Below are positions 5,587 to 43,273 of a stretch of DNA of 60,067 nt, piece after piece. Below the pieces are notes generated by a model. The model saw only the letters and a program-made list of their open reading frames with translations, had not been told where the DNA came from and ran no database searches. Positions within the stretch are counted from its first letter, which is position 1. The number at the start of each line of letters is the position of its first letter. The position numbers and the translations under genes were made by a program. This stretch comes from Dehalococcoidia bacterium (GTDB lineage Bacteria > Chloroflexota > Dehalococcoidia > E44-bin15), in contig DATKYK010000028.1 in assembly GCA_035528575.1 (NCBI GenBank), forward strand, positions 1 to 60,067. The letters are read 5' to 3'.

Positions 5587-6368
5587 ACGATATTCCTTTA
5601 ACTTCAATCGTGGAGAATCTGAGGACAAAGTTCATCGGCCAAAACATCCTTTATTATCCGGTCACCCCCTCCACTATGGATGCGGCGAAGCAGGCAATAA
5701 GGGAAGTTGCAGCGGAGGGAACCGTTGTCATCGCCGACCACCAGACTGCAGGCCGGGGGCGACTGGGCCGTGAGTGGCTTTCACCCCCAGATAGTAACAT
5801 CCTGCTATCTATCGTTCTCTATCCAATGCCGGAACAGCTCCCCCGACTCACCATAGCCGCTTGCCTGGCGGTGGCACAGAGCATCGAGAAGGTCACCGGT
5901 CTTGAGACCACCATCAAGTGGCCCAACGATGTCCTCATCGCAGGAAAAAAGGTGAGTGGTATTTTAATCGAGAGCGATGCTCACGGGGACAGGGTTAACT
6001 ACGCCATTGTGGGCATCGCCTTAAATGTCAATCTTGACCCCACCACCATCCCTGAGATTTCAGAAACGGCCACCAGCCTCAAGGAGATGCTGGGCAGGAA
6101 AGTGTCCCGCAGGGAGATGCTGATAGCACTACTGGATGAATTTGAAACGCTATATAATGCGCTACGCCGCGGCGAGCCAATCGATCGTGAGTGGCGCCAG
6201 CGCCTAGAAACCTTGGGGCAAAGGGTTGCGGTGCGCTGCGGTGATGAGGTTCAGGAGGGCGTTGCCGAGGGGGTGGACGAAGATGGCAACCTGCTGCTCA
6301 GGCACTCCGATGGCAGCCTGATGACCATTGCCGCCGGTGATGTCACAATCAAATCATCGAATTATTGA
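5577..6368 (+). CDS. birA: Biotin-[acetyl-CoA-carboxylase] ligase, monofunctional
   Basis: This enzyme activates biotin with ATP and attaches it to the biotin carrier domain of carboxylases. The biotinyl-AMP loop GRGRLGREW, the KWPNDV motif and KVSGILIE are all present, followed by a C-terminal SH3-like domain. At 263 residues it lacks the N-terminal HTH that bifunctional BirA repressors carry, so it should not regulate transcription. ATG 5577 overlaps the end of the radical SAM gene; GTG 5583 is an alternative start. Its 3' end overlaps the convergent aldehyde oxidoreductase gene by 7 bases. Confidence 0.93.
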   Translation: MAVNDIPLTSIVENLRTKFIGQNILYYPVTPSTMDAAKQAIREVAAEGTVVIADHQTAGRGRLGREWLSPPDSNILLSIVLYPMPEQLPRLTIAACLAVAQSIEKVTGLETTIKWPNDVLIAGKKVSGILIESDAHGDRVNYAIVGIALNVNLDPTTIPEISETATSLKEMLGRKVSRREMLIALLDEFETLYNALRRGEPIDREWRQRLETLGQRVAVRCGDEVQEGVAEGVDEDGNLLLRHSDGSLMTIAAGDVTIKSSNY

Positions 6369-9482: not shown

Positions 9483-10781
9483 TTATTCACCTCCTCTATT
9501 TTTCTTGACTACCCTTAGTTTTAAGCCATCGACCCTGGTTATCACCACCTCCTCTCCTATCTCAACCTTTCCTTCGTCCAGTGTTGCCTCCCAGCGTTCC
9601 CCGTGCACAAACACGGTTCCTGTTGGGTCGAGGGTTGTTCTGGCTACCGCCACCATGCCCACCATCGCCTCTCGCCCTGTCTGCTGTCGCCTTCGGTGGG
9701 TGCGCAGGATAGCCCCGATAACAAAGACGCCAACGATGGTGAACACGATCACCACCCCGGCGATAACACCTGGACTTATCTGGAAAAAGGGACTGCCCAT
9801 CAGGATCATCGAGCCCACGGTAAACGTTGCAATGCCGCCCATGGCAAGCAACCCGTGACTGGATATAAAAACCTCTGCCACAAATAGCCCAAAGGCGAGA
9901 ACGATCAGTAATACCCCGGCATAGTTGACCGGGAGCATCCCTAGGGAATAGAAGGAAAGAAAAAGGCAGATGGCACCGACGACCCCGGGGAAGATGGTCC
10001 CCGGATGAAACAGCTCCAGCATGATACCGAGCATCCCCAGGCTCAGCAGGATGTAGGCGATATTCGGGTCCGCGATTGTGAAGAGAAAGCGCTCCATGGC
10101 ACCCATGTCGGTGTAATCAATTTTGGCACCATCGGTCTTAAGGGTGACCTCCTCCCCGCTTAATAGTGTCACCTGCCATCCATCAAGCTGGATGAGGAGG
10201 TCATCCAAATTATTTGCCACAATATCTATAACCCCCAGCTCCAGGACCTCCGAGGCGGGACTTGACCTGCTCTCCCTTACCGCAGCCTCGGCCCAGTCTA
10301 CATTGCGACCTCGTGCCTCTGCAATGCTTATGATATATGCAACGGCGTCGTTTACCACCTTCTGCTCCATGGTCTCATCTATCCCATCCTCGCCCAGGGC
10401 CACGGGGTGGGCGGCCCCAACTTCGGTGCCCGGTGCCATCGCCGCTACGTGAGATGCGAGTGTGATAAATGCCCCCGCCGAGGCAGCCCTCGACCCTGGC
10501 GGAATATAGACCACCACTGGAATATTCGCCTCCAGGATACGCTGCACAATGTCACGCATGGCACTGTCTAACCCCCCTGGCGTATCCATCTCAATGACGC
10601 AGGCGGTGGCGCCATGCTCCTCAGCCAGCCCGATTCCGCGGTCAATATAGCCAGCAAGGACAGGGTTTACCGTCCCCTCAACCCTGAGGACATCCACCTG
10701 TGGAGTGGCCGCACTAGCTTCCCCGGGTATAAAGAGGATGAGCAACCCGAGCGCTATAAGGAAAAGCCAGAGCTTTCTCAT
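9483..10781 (-). CDS. nfeD: NfeD family membrane serine protease (long form)
   Basis: A 432-residue protein: signal peptide (about 1-25, ending ASAA), a ClpP-like protease domain (30-215), four or more membrane helices (230-360) and a C-terminal OB-fold (375-432). The catalytic Ser is in [10 protein letters not shown] and the oxyanion region is DTPGGL, as in the 1510-N protease that uses a Ser-Lys dyad. It is expected to cleave the hydrophobic C-terminus of the slipin encoded next. A good promoter lies 30-60 bases upstream on the minus strand. Confidence 0.92.
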
Positions 10782-10809
10782 ACCGGATGCTACCTTAGAT
10801 TATCAATTC

Positions 10810-10838
10810 ATTATAGTTGGGTGGTATTCTTTTTACAA
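10810..10838 (-). promoter_or_regulatory. Promoter of the nfeD-slipin operon
   Basis: On the minus strand TTGTAA (10838-10833) and TATAAT (10815-10810) are separated by 17 bases. Transcription would begin around 10803, giving a leader of about 22 bases for nfeD. Confidence 0.65.
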
Positions 10839-10921
10839 TCAAGTGTGCTCATCCATTACACTGGTGATACATTATCACTCGTTTATTGAACCCGCCATCA
10901 CCCCCCTCCGCTTTGCGAGAG

Positions 10922-10971
10922 TCCGATTTATCGGACGATTTAGGCCGAAGCATCCCCCGATATAATCGGGG
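10922..10971. repeat. Two short CCGAT/ATCGG palindromes
   Basis: TCCGATTTATCGGA (10922-10935) and CCCCGATATAATCGGGG (10955-10971) lie in the divergent nfeD/hisZ intergenic region. The second matches the hairpins found in the RNase P RNA (for example 3862-3881 and 3899-3917) and resembles the one at 48661-48675, so this looks like a dispersed mini-palindrome family. Confidence 0.5.
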
Positions 10972-11020
10972 TCGGGGAAAGGAATCTAATATTTCCCACC
11001 CGCCCTCCCTGATATGTATT

Positions 11021-11077
11021 TATGGGGGACACCCCCATGCCCCCGCCAGAGGGGAGACCCCTCTGGACACCCCTCCC
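11021..11077 (-). repeat. Dispersed GC-rich repeat, copy 1
   Basis: Read on the minus strand, this contains GTCCAGAGGG, a short spacer, CCCTCTGG, then a G-run, TGGGGGTGTCCCCC. The same order occurs on the plus strand at 48873-48925. It is non-coding, in the leader region of the histidine operon, and can fold into two stable hairpins. Confidence 0.55.
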
Positions 11078-11091
11078 ATCAGGCCACGTTA

Positions 11092-11120
11092 TTGAAGGCG
11101 GTAGCATATTATTGTAGAAT
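11092..11120 (+). promoter_or_regulatory. Promoter of the histidine operon
   Basis: TTGAAG (11092-11097) and TAGAAT (11115-11120) are 17 bases apart. The predicted start near 11127 leaves a leader of about 22 bases before hisZ. The -10 sequence is identical to that at 75-80. Confidence 0.65.
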
Positions 11121-11148
11121 AACCAAAGCTTTGAAAAAGGTGGTAGGG

Positions 11149-12384
11149 ATGAAAGTGCCAAGATGTAAAGGGATGCGTGATCTGCTTCCCGATGACATGG
11201 TGAAGTTTCGGCAGATCGAGGAGGTCTTTCGCCGCTGCTCGATAAAGTGGGGCTATGAGGAGGTGAGAACCCCGATGCTCGAGTATCTCCACCTTTTTAC
11301 CGCCACCGGGACGCTGACCCCGGGTATGCTTGGCAGAGTGTATTCCTTCCTTGACTGGGATGGCTGGAGTGGCGAAAGGGTGGTACTGCGACCGGAGGGC
11401 ACTATCCCCACCGCGAGACTATATCTGGAAGACTTCGCTGGTGACGAGATATCCCGGCTTTCCTATGTGGGAAATACCTTTACCTTTGAAGAAACGGGAA
11501 GGGAGCAGAGGGAGCGCTGGCAGTGCGGTGTTGAGCTCATCGGAAAAAGCCAGCCCCTCGCTGATGTGGAGCTTGTGCTTCTAGCCTCGGAGGTGCTTGG
11601 TAAACTGGGACTCGGTCCCCTGGAGGTAAAGCTATCCCACGCTGGCTTGATCAAGGCGCTCATAGAGGAGCTCGGATTGGGGGCTGCGGAGCAGACCCAG
11701 ATATTGGACCAGGTGCTGGAGGGTAATATAAAGGCACTGGGTGATATTGAGACCCAGGATGCTGACCTAAAACAGGCGCTAGCCCTTTTAATGGATGTCA
11801 CCGGGAGCTCTCCCGGCTTTCTGGAGAACGTAAGGACAATCCTTGGAAATGCCCTGCCCAGGTTTGAGCCTAGCCTGAAAGACCTTGCCAGCATTGCCGA
11901 GCTACTTGGCGCTATGGATTGCCCCTACCAGATCGATATCGCTTCAGGTAGAGGCTTTGAATACTATACAGGGGTAATATTTCAATTCGATATCTCCAAT
12001 AAGCGGGTTGGAGGAGGGGGAAGATACGATGACCTGATCTCGCTGGTGGGTGGACCTTCCATTCCAGCATCGGGTTTTGCACTGTATATAGATCAACTGA
12101 TGGATCTCCTGAAGCTGGAGGAGAGGCCGGTGCCGGGGATCCTGATCCAGTACCAGGAAGGCAGTATGACTGGGCTCAAGTCCTGCTTTGAGGTGGCTCG
12201 CTCACTGAGGGACTCGGGATATATCGTTCAGCTTGACCAGGGACAGAAGGCGGTGGGCGATTATCGATGGCTTCTTACGGTGTCAGGGAAGGGCCTTTTC
12301 CGCTTAACCGATCAGGCTACCGGTGAAAAGCATGAACTTGCCTCCGAGGCGGAGATTCGGCAGGCAATGGAGAGTTCCGGGTGA
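11149..12384 (+). CDS. hisZ: ATP phosphoribosyltransferase regulatory subunit
   Basis: A 411-residue paralogue of histidyl-tRNA synthetase that forms the regulatory partner of short-form HisG in histidine synthesis. The class II synthetase core is visible (GMRDLLPDD, RPEGTIPTARLYL, ASGRGFEYYTGVIF, GGGGRYDDLI). I call it HisZ, not HisS, because it is joined to hisG by a 4-base overlap and heads a his operon. The start is ATG 11149 with AAAAAGGTGG upstream; a longer in-frame extension to 11014 runs through the GC-rich repeat and the promoter. Confidence 0.88.
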   Translation: MKVPRCKGMRDLLPDDMVKFRQIEEVFRRCSIKWGYEEVRTPMLEYLHLFTATGTLTPGMLGRVYSFLDWDGWSGERVVLRPEGTIPTARLYLEDFAGDEISRLSYVGNTFTFEETGREQRERWQCGVELIGKSQPLADVELVLLASEVLGKLGLGPLEVKLSHAGLIKALIEELGLGAAEQTQILDQVLEGNIKALGDIETQDADLKQALALLMDVTGSSPGFLENVRTILGNALPRFEPSLKDLASIAELLGAMDCPYQIDIASGRGFEYYTGVIFQFDISNKRVGGGGRYDDLISLVGGPSIPASGFALYIDQLMDLLKLEERPVPGILIQYQEGSMTGLKSCFEVARSLRDSGYIVQLDQGQKAVGDYRWLLTVSGKGLFRLTDQATGEKHELASEAEIRQAMESSG

Positions 12385-26244: not shown

Positions 26245-26272
26245 AGCACGCCAAATCCTCGACCAAAGCTTA

Positions 26273-26539
26273 TCACTGTGGTATGCTTTTATCAATAGGC
26301 GTTATGCTTTGGTCATCCGACGTTATACTTTCGTCGCAAATGGATATAAGAGGATTGAATTTTTTATTCTTATCGATTAATTCATTTTGTGACAGATTGG
26401 CATAGTCTTGAGTCATCTCTAAGCTGGAGTGACCCAGTATCCTCTGTAAACTAACCGCATCGCCACCCTGCGTTATCCAGTTACGCCCGAAGGTGTGCCG
26501 AAGAGTGTGAGGACTCGGTCGTATACCCTCTATACCTGC
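26273..26539 (-). pseudogene. Tyrosine integrase remnant, C-terminal part
   Basis: The minus strand encodes the catalytic C-terminal segment of a tyrosine recombinase: HTLRHTF (HxxR motif), RILGHSSLEMTQDYANLS with the second His and the nucleophilic Tyr, then a tail to a stop at 26273. A stop lies directly before the fragment at about 26540 and there is no start codon. It is a relic, beside guaA. Confidence 0.8.
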
Positions 26540-26557
26540 TTAACAAATCTGTTAATT

Positions 26558-26651
26558 GCCTTAATTAAAAATATTACATCGCCTTCTAATCACAACAAAT
26601 CACGGGCTGATTTCCGCATTTAAATGAAACTAAAGAACTTCAGTTAAGTAA
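26558..26651. repeat. Left copies of two short direct repeats
   Basis: GCCTTAATTAAAAA (26558-26571) and GAACTTCAGTTAAGTAA (26635-26651) each recur about 1 kb downstream (27644-27657 and 27548-27564). They bracket the small heptad-repeat gene and the IS200-like relic. The AT-rich DNA between them holds no gene. Confidence 0.55.
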
Positions 26652-26668
26652 AGGAAACTAAAAGGAAA

Positions 26669-26697
26669 TTGATAATTATTTACGCCCATGCTATAAA
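26669..26697 (+). promoter_or_regulatory. Strong promoter of the small heptad-repeat gene
   Basis: TTGATA (26669-26674) and TATAAA (26692-26697) are 17 bases apart. The start near 26704 gives an untranslated leader of about 130 bases containing a hairpin (TTTGCC at 26745-26750 with GGCAAA at 26762-26767). Confidence 0.65.
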
Positions 26698-26832
26698 TGT
26701 TAATGTGAATCCTCAGTATTTCCTACAAATGTGATTTTGGTCTTTTGCCAGGTGCCTGCCGGCAAATTGGCCCTTTAAGTAGCGTATAGCCGCTCTTTTT
26801 AAAAACTTAAAAAGGAAGGGGGTGAGATCAAA

Positions 26833-27027
26833 ATGGCAACTATGTTTGCTGCAGTCGTGGACCTGCTCTTAGTCGTTAAGCAGATGTTATTGGATATAGT
26901 TGGTATGCTGCTTGGCAACGTGACGGATCTGCTCAACTCGACGGTAAGCCTGCTAGGTATACTAGCCGGAGTACTTTACGACGTCGAGGCCTTGCTGGAG
27001 AAGGTCATAACAATGTTGATCTCGTAA
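26833..27027 (+). CDS. Small acidic leucine-rich heptad-repeat protein, unknown
   Basis: A 64-residue protein unlike any family I recognise. From residue 8 to 63 it reads as eight consecutive seven-residue units, with Leu-Leu (or VL/ML) at positions 5 and 6 of every unit. Acidic residues (Asp10, Asp21, Asp32, Asp50, Glu52, Glu56) far outnumber the two lysines. That suggests one long amphipathic or self-associating helix, possibly lying on a membrane. GGAAGGGGGTGA sits at ideal distance from the ATG. A canonical promoter and a terminator bracket it, so it is an independent, expressed unit inside a decayed mobile region. Confidence 0.7.
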   Translation: MATMFAAVVDLLLVVKQMLLDIVGMLLGNVTDLLNSTVSLLGILAGVLYDVEALLEKVITMLIS

Positions 27028-27073
27028 GAGCATCACGATATAAAGTATCGCAAAAGAGATTTGCAAGGAGTGG

Positions 27074-27105
27074 GGGCCTCCAAATGAGGCCCTCATTCCA
27101 TTTTC
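27074..27105 (+). terminator. Intrinsic terminator of the small heptad-repeat gene
   Basis: GGGCCTC (27074-27080) pairs perfectly with GAGGCCC (27086-27092) around a five-base loop, followed by a T-rich tract. It lies 47 bases after the stop codon. Confidence 0.65.
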
Positions 27106-27169
27106 AAACCGCTTCCGGCCACAAAGCACACTCTTCATTGAATTGAGCTGCCCCAAAGTCCGTCTTGGT

Positions 27170-27477
27170 TATCCTTCTAACGCCTATCACGCCGTCCTAC
27201 GAAGGTAATATGGATATGGCTCTGGATACGTACTCTGTGTGACATTACTGAGCAACTAGGTGAATCACCCCTCAGCGAGCGGAGGAGTATCTGAAAGCCC
27301 TTCCAACATGCGTAATTGGAAGGCGTTCTCCTAGTGGGTTTGATATTCAGTGGTATATATCTATCTCTCCAGCACTGTGGAACTTCATTGCCTAAAATGC
27401 GCTTCCTGCACTCGGGTACCCCAGACCAGGTGGTACTTAAGGTCAAAAACGTTATACTTCGTCTTTCTGACCCCCAT
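27170..27477 (-). pseudogene. IS200/IS605-type TnpA transposase relic
   Basis: From an ATG at 27477 the minus strand reads MGVRKTKYNVFDLKYHLVWG, the typical N-terminus of IS200-family Y1 transposases. It then breaks: a frameshift and stops follow, with pieces such as CRKRILGNEV and SHIHITFVGRR in other frames. It is inactive. Confidence 0.65.
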
Positions 27478-27547
27478 GTTAACCCGCCAGAACCGAACCC
27501 ATAGTTAAAACGGAACCCCATTTAGCAAATCATAAAACCAAACTGTA

Positions 27548-27657
27548 GAACTTCAGTTAAGTAATGTCAATTAATCAACTTAATACTCACATTAAACTCG
27601 AATAAGAGGACGATTTTATAGCTATAATACAAATATGTATACAGCCTTAATTAAAAA
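27548..27657. repeat. Right copies of two short direct repeats
   Basis: GAACTTCAGTTAAGTAA (27548-27564) and GCCTTAATTAAAAA (27644-27657) repeat sequences at 26635 and 26558, but in swapped order. The surrounding AT-rich stretch 27522-27800 has no gene I can support. Confidence 0.55.
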
Positions 27658-27808
27658 CATATGTTTACTCATGAATTATGCATCATTAATGGCTAATCAG
27701 GCCACAAATTTTTCTTTTGTGCACGCTCCGAGTAAAAAAGCCGCATGTTCAGCGGGAGATGCCGTCCAGCCTGAGCCGGGCGCCTCGGCTCAAACTGGGG
27801 GCTAGATG

Positions 27809-27943
27809 TTACTCCTCCTCTTCGTCAGCCTGCTCAACCAAATCATCGAAGACCACGGCAGGAATATGGATGTCTTCGGGGTCAGCACCGAGCTTCTTGA
27901 CATCTTCCCACAGATGTTTCAATCCAGAACGCGAGCGGTATCC
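27809..27943 (-). pseudogene. Fragment of an unknown acidic-tailed protein
   Basis: In a second frame overlapping the end of the integrase piece, the minus strand reads a 44-residue peptide with GLKHLWEDVKKLG and an acidic tail ending QADEEEE, to a stop at 27809. It has no start of its own and appears fused by deletion to the integrase remnant. I do not recognise the parent protein. Confidence 0.35.
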
Positions 27944-28322
27944 GCTCTACCCTTTGCTCCAGGGCTTGCCTGCTGCGAAAAACGCCCTCATTCCTGCCGA
28001 AAAATGAGGCTAGTGCTTGCTTCGTGTTATCGGTGATTAACAAGGCCCTCACTCCTGCCTTTGTTTTTGGCCCCCAAGCTCCTTGCCTAAACTTTTTGCA
28101 CTCGTAGCAGCTACAATGCTGCCTACTGGGTATCTCGATATAGCCTTTGTCCCAGTTAACCCAAGTTTTCAAGGTGTGTTGAACCTCGCCAATTCTCAGG
28201 CCAGCGAACAAAGGTAAGCGTACTACCAGGTGATCGAGTTCATCACGGCACGTACTAAGTAGCTGCCTCGCTTCCTCGGAGTTTAGCGCATCATCCTTGC
28301 TGCTTCTTAGCGTTGTTGGCAC
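27940..28322 (-). pseudogene. Tyrosine integrase remnant, core part
   Basis: The minus strand encodes LNSEEARQLLSTC, FAGLRIGEVQ with the first catalytic Arg, and GPKTKAGVRALLI with the catalytic Lys region, up to QALEQRVERI, where similarity stops. It lacks the HxxR and Tyr motifs, which occur in the matching fragment at 26273-26539. The two pieces look like one gene split by about 1.4 kb of inserted DNA. Confidence 0.75.
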
Positions 28323-28462
28323 AATACTCCTTCTTGAGGTTTAGAATTGTCAGCCTCAAGGCTGTTCGCCAATCCAATTAGCGATTGTGATACGTGGTCG
28401 AGAGCTATTCCAATTTCACGAATGTAGTGGACAGGGCTTTGGCATGTGGCATAACACTGTGA

Positions 28463-28468
28463 TATACT
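28463..28468 (+). promoter_or_regulatory. Probable -10 element of tsaC
   Basis: TATACT (28463-28468) lies 9 bases before the tsaC ATG. If used, transcription would start only a few bases before the start codon, giving an almost leaderless mRNA. No convincing -35 box is seen. Confidence 0.4.
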
Positions 28469-28477
28469 GGCGTCAAG

Positions 28478-29089
28478 ATGGAAAGGAAGATACATCAGGC
28501 TATAGAAACACTGAAGAATGGGGGGATCGTCGCCTTCCCCACAGATACCGTCTATGGGCTGGGTGCTAATGCCTCTAGTCATGGCGCCATCTTAAGGATT
28601 TATGAGGCAAAAAGGAGACCGCGCCATCTTGCCCTTCCCCTGCTACTCGCCGACGTGTCCCAGATTCCGTCCGTGGCCAGGGATATGCCCGAGATTGCAT
28701 GGCTGTTGGCGAAGCACTTCCTACCTGGGGGTTTAACCCTTGTTTTGTATAAATCTCCATCAGTATCGAGCCTGATCACGGGGGGGAGCGAAAAAATTGC
28801 AGTGCGGGTGCCGGCTCACCCTATTCCTATCGCCCTACTGGAGGGTCTGGACGCCCCCATCACCGGCACAAGCGCAAACCTCACCGGCAAACCCAGCCCG
28901 CTAACCACCCAGGAGGTTCATAACCAATTGGGAGACATGGTCGACCTCATTATCGATGGTGAATGTCCAGGAGGAGTCGTTTCCACAGTAATTGACATAA
29001 CCACTGACCCCATCAGGATTCTCAGGGAAGGGGCGATAAGCAGTGAGGAGATCTCAAGGGTATGCGAGGCTACAGTAAAGGAGGGCTGA
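28478..29089 (+). CDS. tsaC: L-threonylcarbamoyladenylate synthase
   Basis: Makes threonylcarbamoyl-AMP from Thr, bicarbonate and ATP, for the t6A37 modification of tRNAs. The 203-residue TsaC/YrdC-domain form contains GGIVAFPTDTVYGLGANA, IYEAKRRPRHLALPLLL, FLPGGLTLVL and ITGTSANLTGKP. The KR and SAN motifs are the substrate-binding signature. The stop overlaps the rpiB start by one base. Confidence 0.93.
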   Translation: MERKIHQAIETLKNGGIVAFPTDTVYGLGANASSHGAILRIYEAKRRPRHLALPLLLADVSQIPSVARDMPEIAWLLAKHFLPGGLTLVLYKSPSVSSLITGGSEKIAVRVPAHPIPIALLEGLDAPITGTSANLTGKPSPLTTQEVHNQLGDMVDLIIDGECPGGVVSTVIDITTDPIRILREGAISSEEISRVCEATVKEG

Positions 29090-43205: not shown

Positions 43206-43273
43206 AGTCAGGGTGTCTGCCTGTCGAGCTCATAACCCGAAGGTCGTTGGTTCGAATCCAACCCCTGCTGGCA
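43206..43273 (+). pseudogene. tRNA-Met (CAT) remnant with shortened D-arm
   Basis: The 3' two thirds are tRNA-like: anticodon loop CTCATAA, variable AGGTC, T-arm GTTGG-TTCGAAT-CCAAC and acceptor CCCTGCT. The 5' acceptor AG-CAGGG matches only with a bulged T, the anticodon stem has one mismatch, the D-arm region is about 10 bases instead of 17-20, and the end is GCA instead of CCA. I judge it non-functional, a relic of integration or recombination at a tRNA-Met gene. Confidence 0.6.

What the first reader, a model, noticed from the sequence alone, without database searches (positions are those of the whole stretch)
26833..27027. Small acidic protein built of eight leucine heptads, with dedicated promoter and terminator
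Residues 8-63 divide into eight 7-residue units with Leu-Leu-type pairs at positions 5 and 6 in each. It has a near-consensus promoter, a 130-base structured leader, a strong ribosome site and an intrinsic terminator, yet sits in a graveyard of mobile DNA. Retaining such control sequences suggests function: membrane peptide, toxin, phage-defence trigger or self-assembling fibre.
Basis: partly seen in the sequence, partly recalled or inferred. Interest (0 to 1): 0.7.

Follow-up and report, generated by a model that had tools for sequence, protein, structure and literature searches.

The report
Orphan amphipathic-helix family on integrative elements
The 64-residue leucine-rich protein is a real gene: it belongs to a five-member family seen only in this one bacterial genome, carried inside small pieces of DNA that inserted themselves into the chromosome, and it probably forms one long membrane-hugging helix whose job is unknown.

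Summary
The ORF at 26833-27027 has eight 7-residue units with hydrophobic pairs at positions 5-6 (shuffle p about 1e-4), a near-consensus promoter, a strong ribosome site and a strong 3' hairpin. The leader is not unusually structured, and the hairpin's U-run is weak. The gene is real: the same genome holds four tandem paralogues (52-61% identity) on another contig. DNA similarity between window copy and array runs only from ribosome site to stop codon, and residue classes are conserved far beyond neutral expectation (p<0.0003). The strict leucine heptad is peculiar to the window copy; the family shares one continuous amphipathic helix, net charge -4 to -6, and a conserved C-terminus.

Both loci are mobile. 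The window copy lies in a decayed 2.18-kb insertion between guaA and tsaC, absent from seven relatives. The array lies in a 5.15-kb tRNA-Phe-integrated element with an HTH-XerC integrase, a type also found in related genomes with other cargo.

No homologue was found in about 790 genomes of the class and phylum, in the genome or viral contig collections, or among phages, plasmids, Pfam, PHROGs, NCBIfam, PADLOC or PDB. Most likely it is a membrane-associated, self-assembling cargo peptide; toxin-like or surfactant-like action is plausible but unshown.

The parts
26268..26287 (.). left copy of an imperfect 20-bp direct repeat (GCTTATCACTGTGGTATGCT) at the edge of the insertion
   Evidence: the matching 20 bp of the relative align to both ends of the insertion
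26288..28468 (.). 2,181-bp insertion between guaA and tsaC, absent from relatives; decayed integrative element that holds the gene
   Evidence: guaA-tsaC gap about 190 bp in seven relatives, about 2.4 kb here
26273..26538 (-). C-terminal fragment of a tyrosine recombinase (HTLRHTFGRNWITQGGDAVSLQRILGHSSLEMTQDYANLS)
   Evidence: translation; 38% identity over 37 aa to the C21 integrase, E=0.003
26669..26697 (+). promoter-like site TTGATA-17-TATAAA with extended TG
26813..26825 (+). ribosome-binding site AGGAAGGGGGTGA; GGTGAG core shared with the paralogues
26833..27027 (+). 64-aa amphipathic-helix protein, five-member orphan family (window copy)
27067..27099 (+). 14-pair hairpin, then AUUUUC; probable terminator
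   Evidence: z=-6.1
27882..28322 (-). internal and N-terminal-side fragment of a tyrosine recombinase (LPLFAGLRIGEV...), frame lost afterwards
   Evidence: no Pfam hit at E 0.01, assignment by inspection and a weak match to the C21 integrase
28449..28468 (.). right copy of the 20-bp repeat (GCATAACACTGTGATATACT), overlapping the likely tsaC -10 region

Best explanation
The ORF is a genuine, expressed-looking gene of an undescribed five-member family of 64-79-residue acidic proteins found only in this genome. Each member folds as one long amphipathic alpha-helix, which probably lies on or in the cytoplasmic membrane and self-associates through its leucine-rich face. The genes are cargo of small tyrosine-recombinase elements: a decayed 2.18-kb insertion here, and a 5.15-kb tRNA-Phe-integrated element with a tandem array on contig C21. 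Shown: gene reality, coding constraint, family, mobile context. Inferred: helix (model), membrane association and oligomerisation (amphipathicity and hydropathy). Most likely role, weakly supported: a membrane-active peptide that benefits the element, in the manner of small hydrophobic toxins or phenol-soluble-modulin-type surfactants.
For: Four tandem paralogues at E=3e-15 to 4e-17, 22 invariant positions. DNA identity between window copy and array is 55-80% inside the ORF and falls to 10-43% outside it. Residue class is kept at 47-51 of 59 sites against 35-38 under neutral simulation, p<0.0003 for all four pairs; dN/dS of the C-terminal half 0.24-0.50. Five intact frames, no indel in the shared 59 codons. 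Single helix 2-63 in models of the window copy (pLDDT 88) and of array copy 1 (85). 100-degree amphipathicity in four of five copies, p 0.001-0.1. Hydropathy up to +1.48, with 19-residue stretches of favourable transfer energy in all copies. Both loci lie in integrated elements. Low GC, 45% against 53%.
Against: The helix models rest on five sequences of one genome, and for the window copy four of the five AlphaFold runs gave pLDDT of only 57-65. Charged residues (D10, K16, D21) interrupt the hydrophobic stretch, so transmembrane insertion is marginal (-2.2 kcal/mol) and a soluble coiled-coil bundle is possible. Within the array dN/dS is near 1 and amino-acid identity is mostly not above neutral expectation for several pairs, so constraint there is looser. 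No exporter or partner gene in the C21 element. No expression data.
Confidence: 0.55

Rival explanations
1. Type I toxin-antitoxin module: the peptide depolarises or permeabilises the membrane, is held off by an antisense RNA, and stabilises the element.
For: Small hydrophobic helical protein on mobile DNA, in tandem copies. Membrane-associated type I toxins are small, hydrophobic and alpha-helical, and SprG1 lies in a pathogenicity island (PMC8309996). The predicted leader fold pairs GGCCCUUU with the ribosome site.
Against: No promoter-like site on the minus strand of the array; the two near the window copy do not start within the ORF or its leader. Net charge -4 to -6, without the cationic C-terminus typical of the class; 64-79 aa against under 60. 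No padloc, phrogs or pfam match.
Confidence: 0.15
2. Secreted surfactant or bacteriocin-like peptide, comparable to beta-type phenol-soluble modulins or multi-peptide leaderless bacteriocins.
For: Tandem paralogues; leaderless amphipathic helix; sequence diversification in the N-terminal half (dN/dS near or above 1). One PSM (PSM-mec) is encoded on a mobile element (PMC7913919).
Against: No Pfam match to the PSM families at E<=10; no transporter or immunity gene in the 5.15-kb element; much longer helix and acidic charge.
Confidence: 0.12
3. Soluble structural peptide: a coiled-coil bundle, barrel or fibre assembled through hydrophobic positions 2, 5 and 6, with the polar face outwards.
For: Regular 7-residue periodicity of the window copy (p=0.0005 at 2/7 per residue); polar residues concentrated at positions 3, 4 and 7; single continuous helix.
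Against: The strict heptad is lost in the paralogues (4-5 of 8 units), three of which have their best period at 100 degrees (3.6 residues) rather than 3.5; hydropathy too high for a typical soluble coiled coil.
Confidence: 0.15
4. Non-functional relic: a decaying duplicate of the array genes without present function in the window copy.
For: It sits in a decayed insertion with broken recombinase genes; its array-like flanks are gone.
Against: Intact frame where only 22-28% of neutral simulations stay open; class conservation p<0.0003; promoter, ribosome site and hairpin intact.
Confidence: 0.1

Closest known systems
Beta-type phenol-soluble modulins of staphylococci
   Same: leaderless amphipathic alpha-helical small proteins; a PSM is also found on a mobile element; tandem paralogues (from memory)
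   Different: no sequence match; longer single helix, strongly acidic; no exporter nearby; unrelated host
Membrane-associated type I toxins (Fst/Ldr, Ibs, Hok, SprG, AapA)
   Same: small, hydrophobic, alpha-helical; some on mobile elements
   Different: longer, acidic, no cationic C-terminus, no antisense RNA promoter found
tRNA-targeted minimal integrative elements with tyrosine integrase (carrier, not the protein)
   Same: integrase gene opening in a 44-54-nt duplicate of a tRNA end, intact tRNA at the other end, HTH_17 gene, variable cargo
   Different: the C21 element carries the small-protein array; the window insertion is not in a tRNA and its recombinase is broken
DUF7554 (Pfam PF24431)
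   Same: weak local match of residues 11-48, E=0.034, 14.9 bits
   Different: below the curated cut-off of 25 bits; only one of five members matches; treated as chance

Membership tests
Beta-type phenol-soluble modulins | sequence match to the PSM families of Pfam | tested here: not met
   no such match at E<=10 for any of the five members
Beta-type phenol-soluble modulins | leaderless amphipathic alpha-helix | tested here: met
   (prediction only)
Beta-type phenol-soluble modulins | dedicated ABC exporter | tested here: inconclusive
   none among the genes of the C21 element; the rest of the genome was not searched
Beta-type phenol-soluble modulins | secretion and surfactant activity | not testable with these tools
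   needs peptide and assay
Membrane-associated type I toxins | under 60 aa, hydrophobic helix, generally cationic C-terminus (PMC8309996) | tested here: not met
   64-79 aa; hydrophobic; net -4 to -6; C-terminus EKVITMLIS
Membrane-associated type I toxins | antisense RNA antitoxin | tested here: inconclusive
   no minus-strand promoter-like site in the array; two near the window copy, neither inside the ORF or its leader; sigma-70 consensus only
Membrane-associated type I toxins | toxicity on overexpression | not testable with these tools
   experiment
Phage holins and other phage proteins | match to a PHROGs family | tested here: not met
   none at E<=10
Known anti-phage defence proteins | match to a PADLOC model | tested here: not met
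   none at E<=10
tRNA-targeted integrative element (carrier of the array) | tyrosine integrase adjacent to a duplicated tRNA end, with an intact tRNA at the other end | tested here: met
   tRNA-Phe at L008 6218-6291, exact 53-nt copy at 11389-11441, integrase 10406-11437
tRNA-targeted integrative element (window copy) | tRNA target and intact integrase | tested here: not met
   inserted in the guaA-tsaC intergenic region; recombinase in fragments

The most novel reading that the evidence does not exclude
A new class of element-borne peptides: a single uninterrupted amphipathic helix of about 62 residues (about 9 nm), arranged in tandem diversifying arrays as cargo of minimal tRNA-integrating elements. 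It assembles on or in the membrane and acts as a toxin, exclusion factor or defence trigger, with the conserved C-terminal third as the assembly core and the diversified N-terminal half as the specificity part.
Probability: 0.2. Interest if true: 0.7.

Novelty: new variant of a known kind. Interest (0 to 1): 0.45.

Why it matters
The family shows that small ORFs which gene finders often skip can be real, constrained genes carried by tiny integrative elements, with no relative in any library searched. If the peptides are membrane-active, the tandem array with a conserved tail and a diversified head would be a natural set for asking what minimal elements gain from short helical cargo. If not, the family is still a clean case of a lineage-restricted protein family confirmed by internal paralogues alone.

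Tried and rejected
Homologue searches outside the genome gave nothing: phages and plasmids by tblastn, genome and viral contig scans with the profile, about 790 genomes of class and phylum (best outside hits E 0.02-0.1, mostly inside longer ORFs, judged chance), flanks of related integrases, and a degenerate YDxEALLEK DNA scan whose 79 loci matched essentially only through the seed motif. DUF7554 was rejected as below cut-off. Foldseek against viral and solved structures found nothing, as expected for a lone helix. Rfam found no element in either locus apart from tRNA. The exact 17-nt repeats at 26635 and 27548 were considered as element ends, but the comparison with relatives puts the ends at 26268-26287 and 28449-28468. 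A search for other tandem small-protein arrays beside related integrases found none comparable. A dedicated promoter for the array was not found, only a weak site at L008 8443.

Full report
What was checked. The ORF at 26833-27027 translates as MATMFAAVVDLLLVVKQMLLDIVGMLLGNVTDLLNSTVSLLGILAGVLYDVEALLEKVITMLIS. The promoter TTGATA-17-TATAAA with an extended TG lies at 26669-26697; a site this good occurs in 0.6% of shuffled 300-bp stretches. The ribosome site is strong. The 3' hairpin (14 pairs, 27067-27099) folds at z=-6.1 but is followed by only four U; the leader is not unusually stable (z=-1.2).

It is a real gene. A search of the whole genome finds four more copies in tandem on contig C21 (L008 8832-9026, 9135-9329, 9494-9688, 10001-10240), 52-61% identical to the window protein, with 22 invariant positions and a conserved end AGVLYDVEALLEKVITMLIS. 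Between the window copy and the array, DNA identity is 55-80% within the ORF and 10-43% just outside it, apart from the GGTGAG of the ribosome site. Against neutral simulation with the same number of substitutions, residue class is kept at 47-51 of 59 sites rather than 35-38 (p<0.0003, all four comparisons), and only 22-28% of simulated sequences keep an open frame. dN/dS in the C-terminal half is 0.24-0.50 for the window copy against the array; the N-terminal half and comparisons within the array are mostly near 1 or above. These are short sequences, so the ratios are rough.

What the family shares. The eight-fold leucine pair is particular to the window copy; paralogues keep it in 4-5 of 8 units. 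Common to most is amphipathicity at 100 degrees, a net charge of -4 to -6 and high hydropathy. AlphaFold gives one uninterrupted helix 2-63 for the window copy (best model pLDDT 88, the other four 57-65) and for array copy 1 (others 67-80). Transfer energies of 19-residue stretches are favourable but mostly marginal (window copy -2.2 kcal/mol; array copy 1 -10.6). A membrane-surface or membrane-embedded amphipathic helix that self-associates is therefore the likeliest physical state, by inference.

Where the genes live. In relatives of the same family guaA and tsaC are divergent neighbours with a gap of 184-196 bp (G001, G002, G003, G004, G007, G009, G013); in this genome the gap is about 2.4 kb. 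Alignment to G013 places a 2,181-bp insertion whose ends carry an imperfect 20-bp direct repeat (26268-26287, 28449-28468), as left by site-specific recombination. The insertion contains fragments of tyrosine recombinase coding sequence on the minus strand at both sides of the gene, low GC (45% against 53%), and DNA also scattered on other contigs. The C21 array lies in a 5.15-kb element between an intact tRNA-Phe (L008 6218-6291) and an exact 53-nt copy of that tRNA's 3' part (11389-11441), with an HTH_17 gene at one end and an HTH-plus-integrase gene at the other. The same integrase type sits in duplicated tRNA ends in G138 (tRNA-Met, 5.4 kb) and G149 (tRNA-Glu, 7.6 kb), and a more distant one (about 33% identity) in tRNA-Val on contig C40 of this genome (5.0 kb); the HTH_17 gene recurs in G138 and C40. 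The small-protein family is not among their cargo. So the gene is cargo of two separate integrated elements, one decayed and one apparently intact.

What it is related to. Nothing outside this genome: no match in relatives, class or phylum samples, genome or viral contigs, phages or plasmids, Pfam, PHROGs, PADLOC, NCBIfam, solved structures by sequence or by fold. Absence from the sampled collections does not prove absence in nature: the metagenome collection could not be searched, and records very near this genome may have been left out.

How it may work. The most likely reading is a membrane-associated, self-assembling cargo peptide. The conserved C-terminal third would form the common core, and the diversified N-terminal half would vary between copies. 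Toxin-like action (type I) lacks an antisense promoter and the cationic tail usual for that class (PMC8309996). PSM-like secretion lacks an exporter in the element and a sequence match. A soluble coiled-coil bundle cannot be excluded. None of these has direct evidence.

Host. Complete 1.4-1.9-Mb genomes in the same class suggest Dehalococcoidia (inference from genome sizes only; not verified by name).

Noticed in passing
window 27257-27478; copies on C21 95173-95427, C30 38575-38748, C24 128566-128648, C9 24814-24908: A dispersed non-coding repeat (motif CCCCTCAGnnAGCnGAGGGGnATCTGAAAGC...), 67-84% alike, not structured beyond shuffles in the window copy; possibly a small non-autonomous element.
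   Followed up: partly
window 26635-26651 and 27548-27564: Exact 17-nt direct repeat GAACTTCAGTTAAGTAA, found nowhere else in the genome even with 2 mismatches; longer imperfect repeats of 40 nt surround it and resemble a stretch on C9.
   Followed up: partly
L008 6218-6291 (C21), with C21 25316-25354: Two integrated elements share one tRNA-Phe: an exact 39-nt copy of the tRNA 5' part lies 7.9 kb to the left, and a second integrase gene (L008 5046-6227) ends inside the tRNA, which suggests tandem integration.
   Followed up: partly
window 28449-28478: The insertion lies in the likely promoter of tsaC; the right end retains a TATACT -10-like sequence, so tsaC has a new upstream region in this genome.
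   Followed up: no
window 43207-43270: Weak tRNA match (30.7 bits, just above the Rfam cut-off) close downstream of the tmRNA gene, not called by ARAGORN; possible tRNA remnant.
   Followed up: no
L062 7484-8435 and 9245-9346 (contig C9): A broken relative of the HTH-XerC integrase, plus a second fragment of its C-terminus and an HTH_17 remnant: another decayed element of the same type, with a 53-nt direct repeat at 5882 and 7427.
   Followed up: partly
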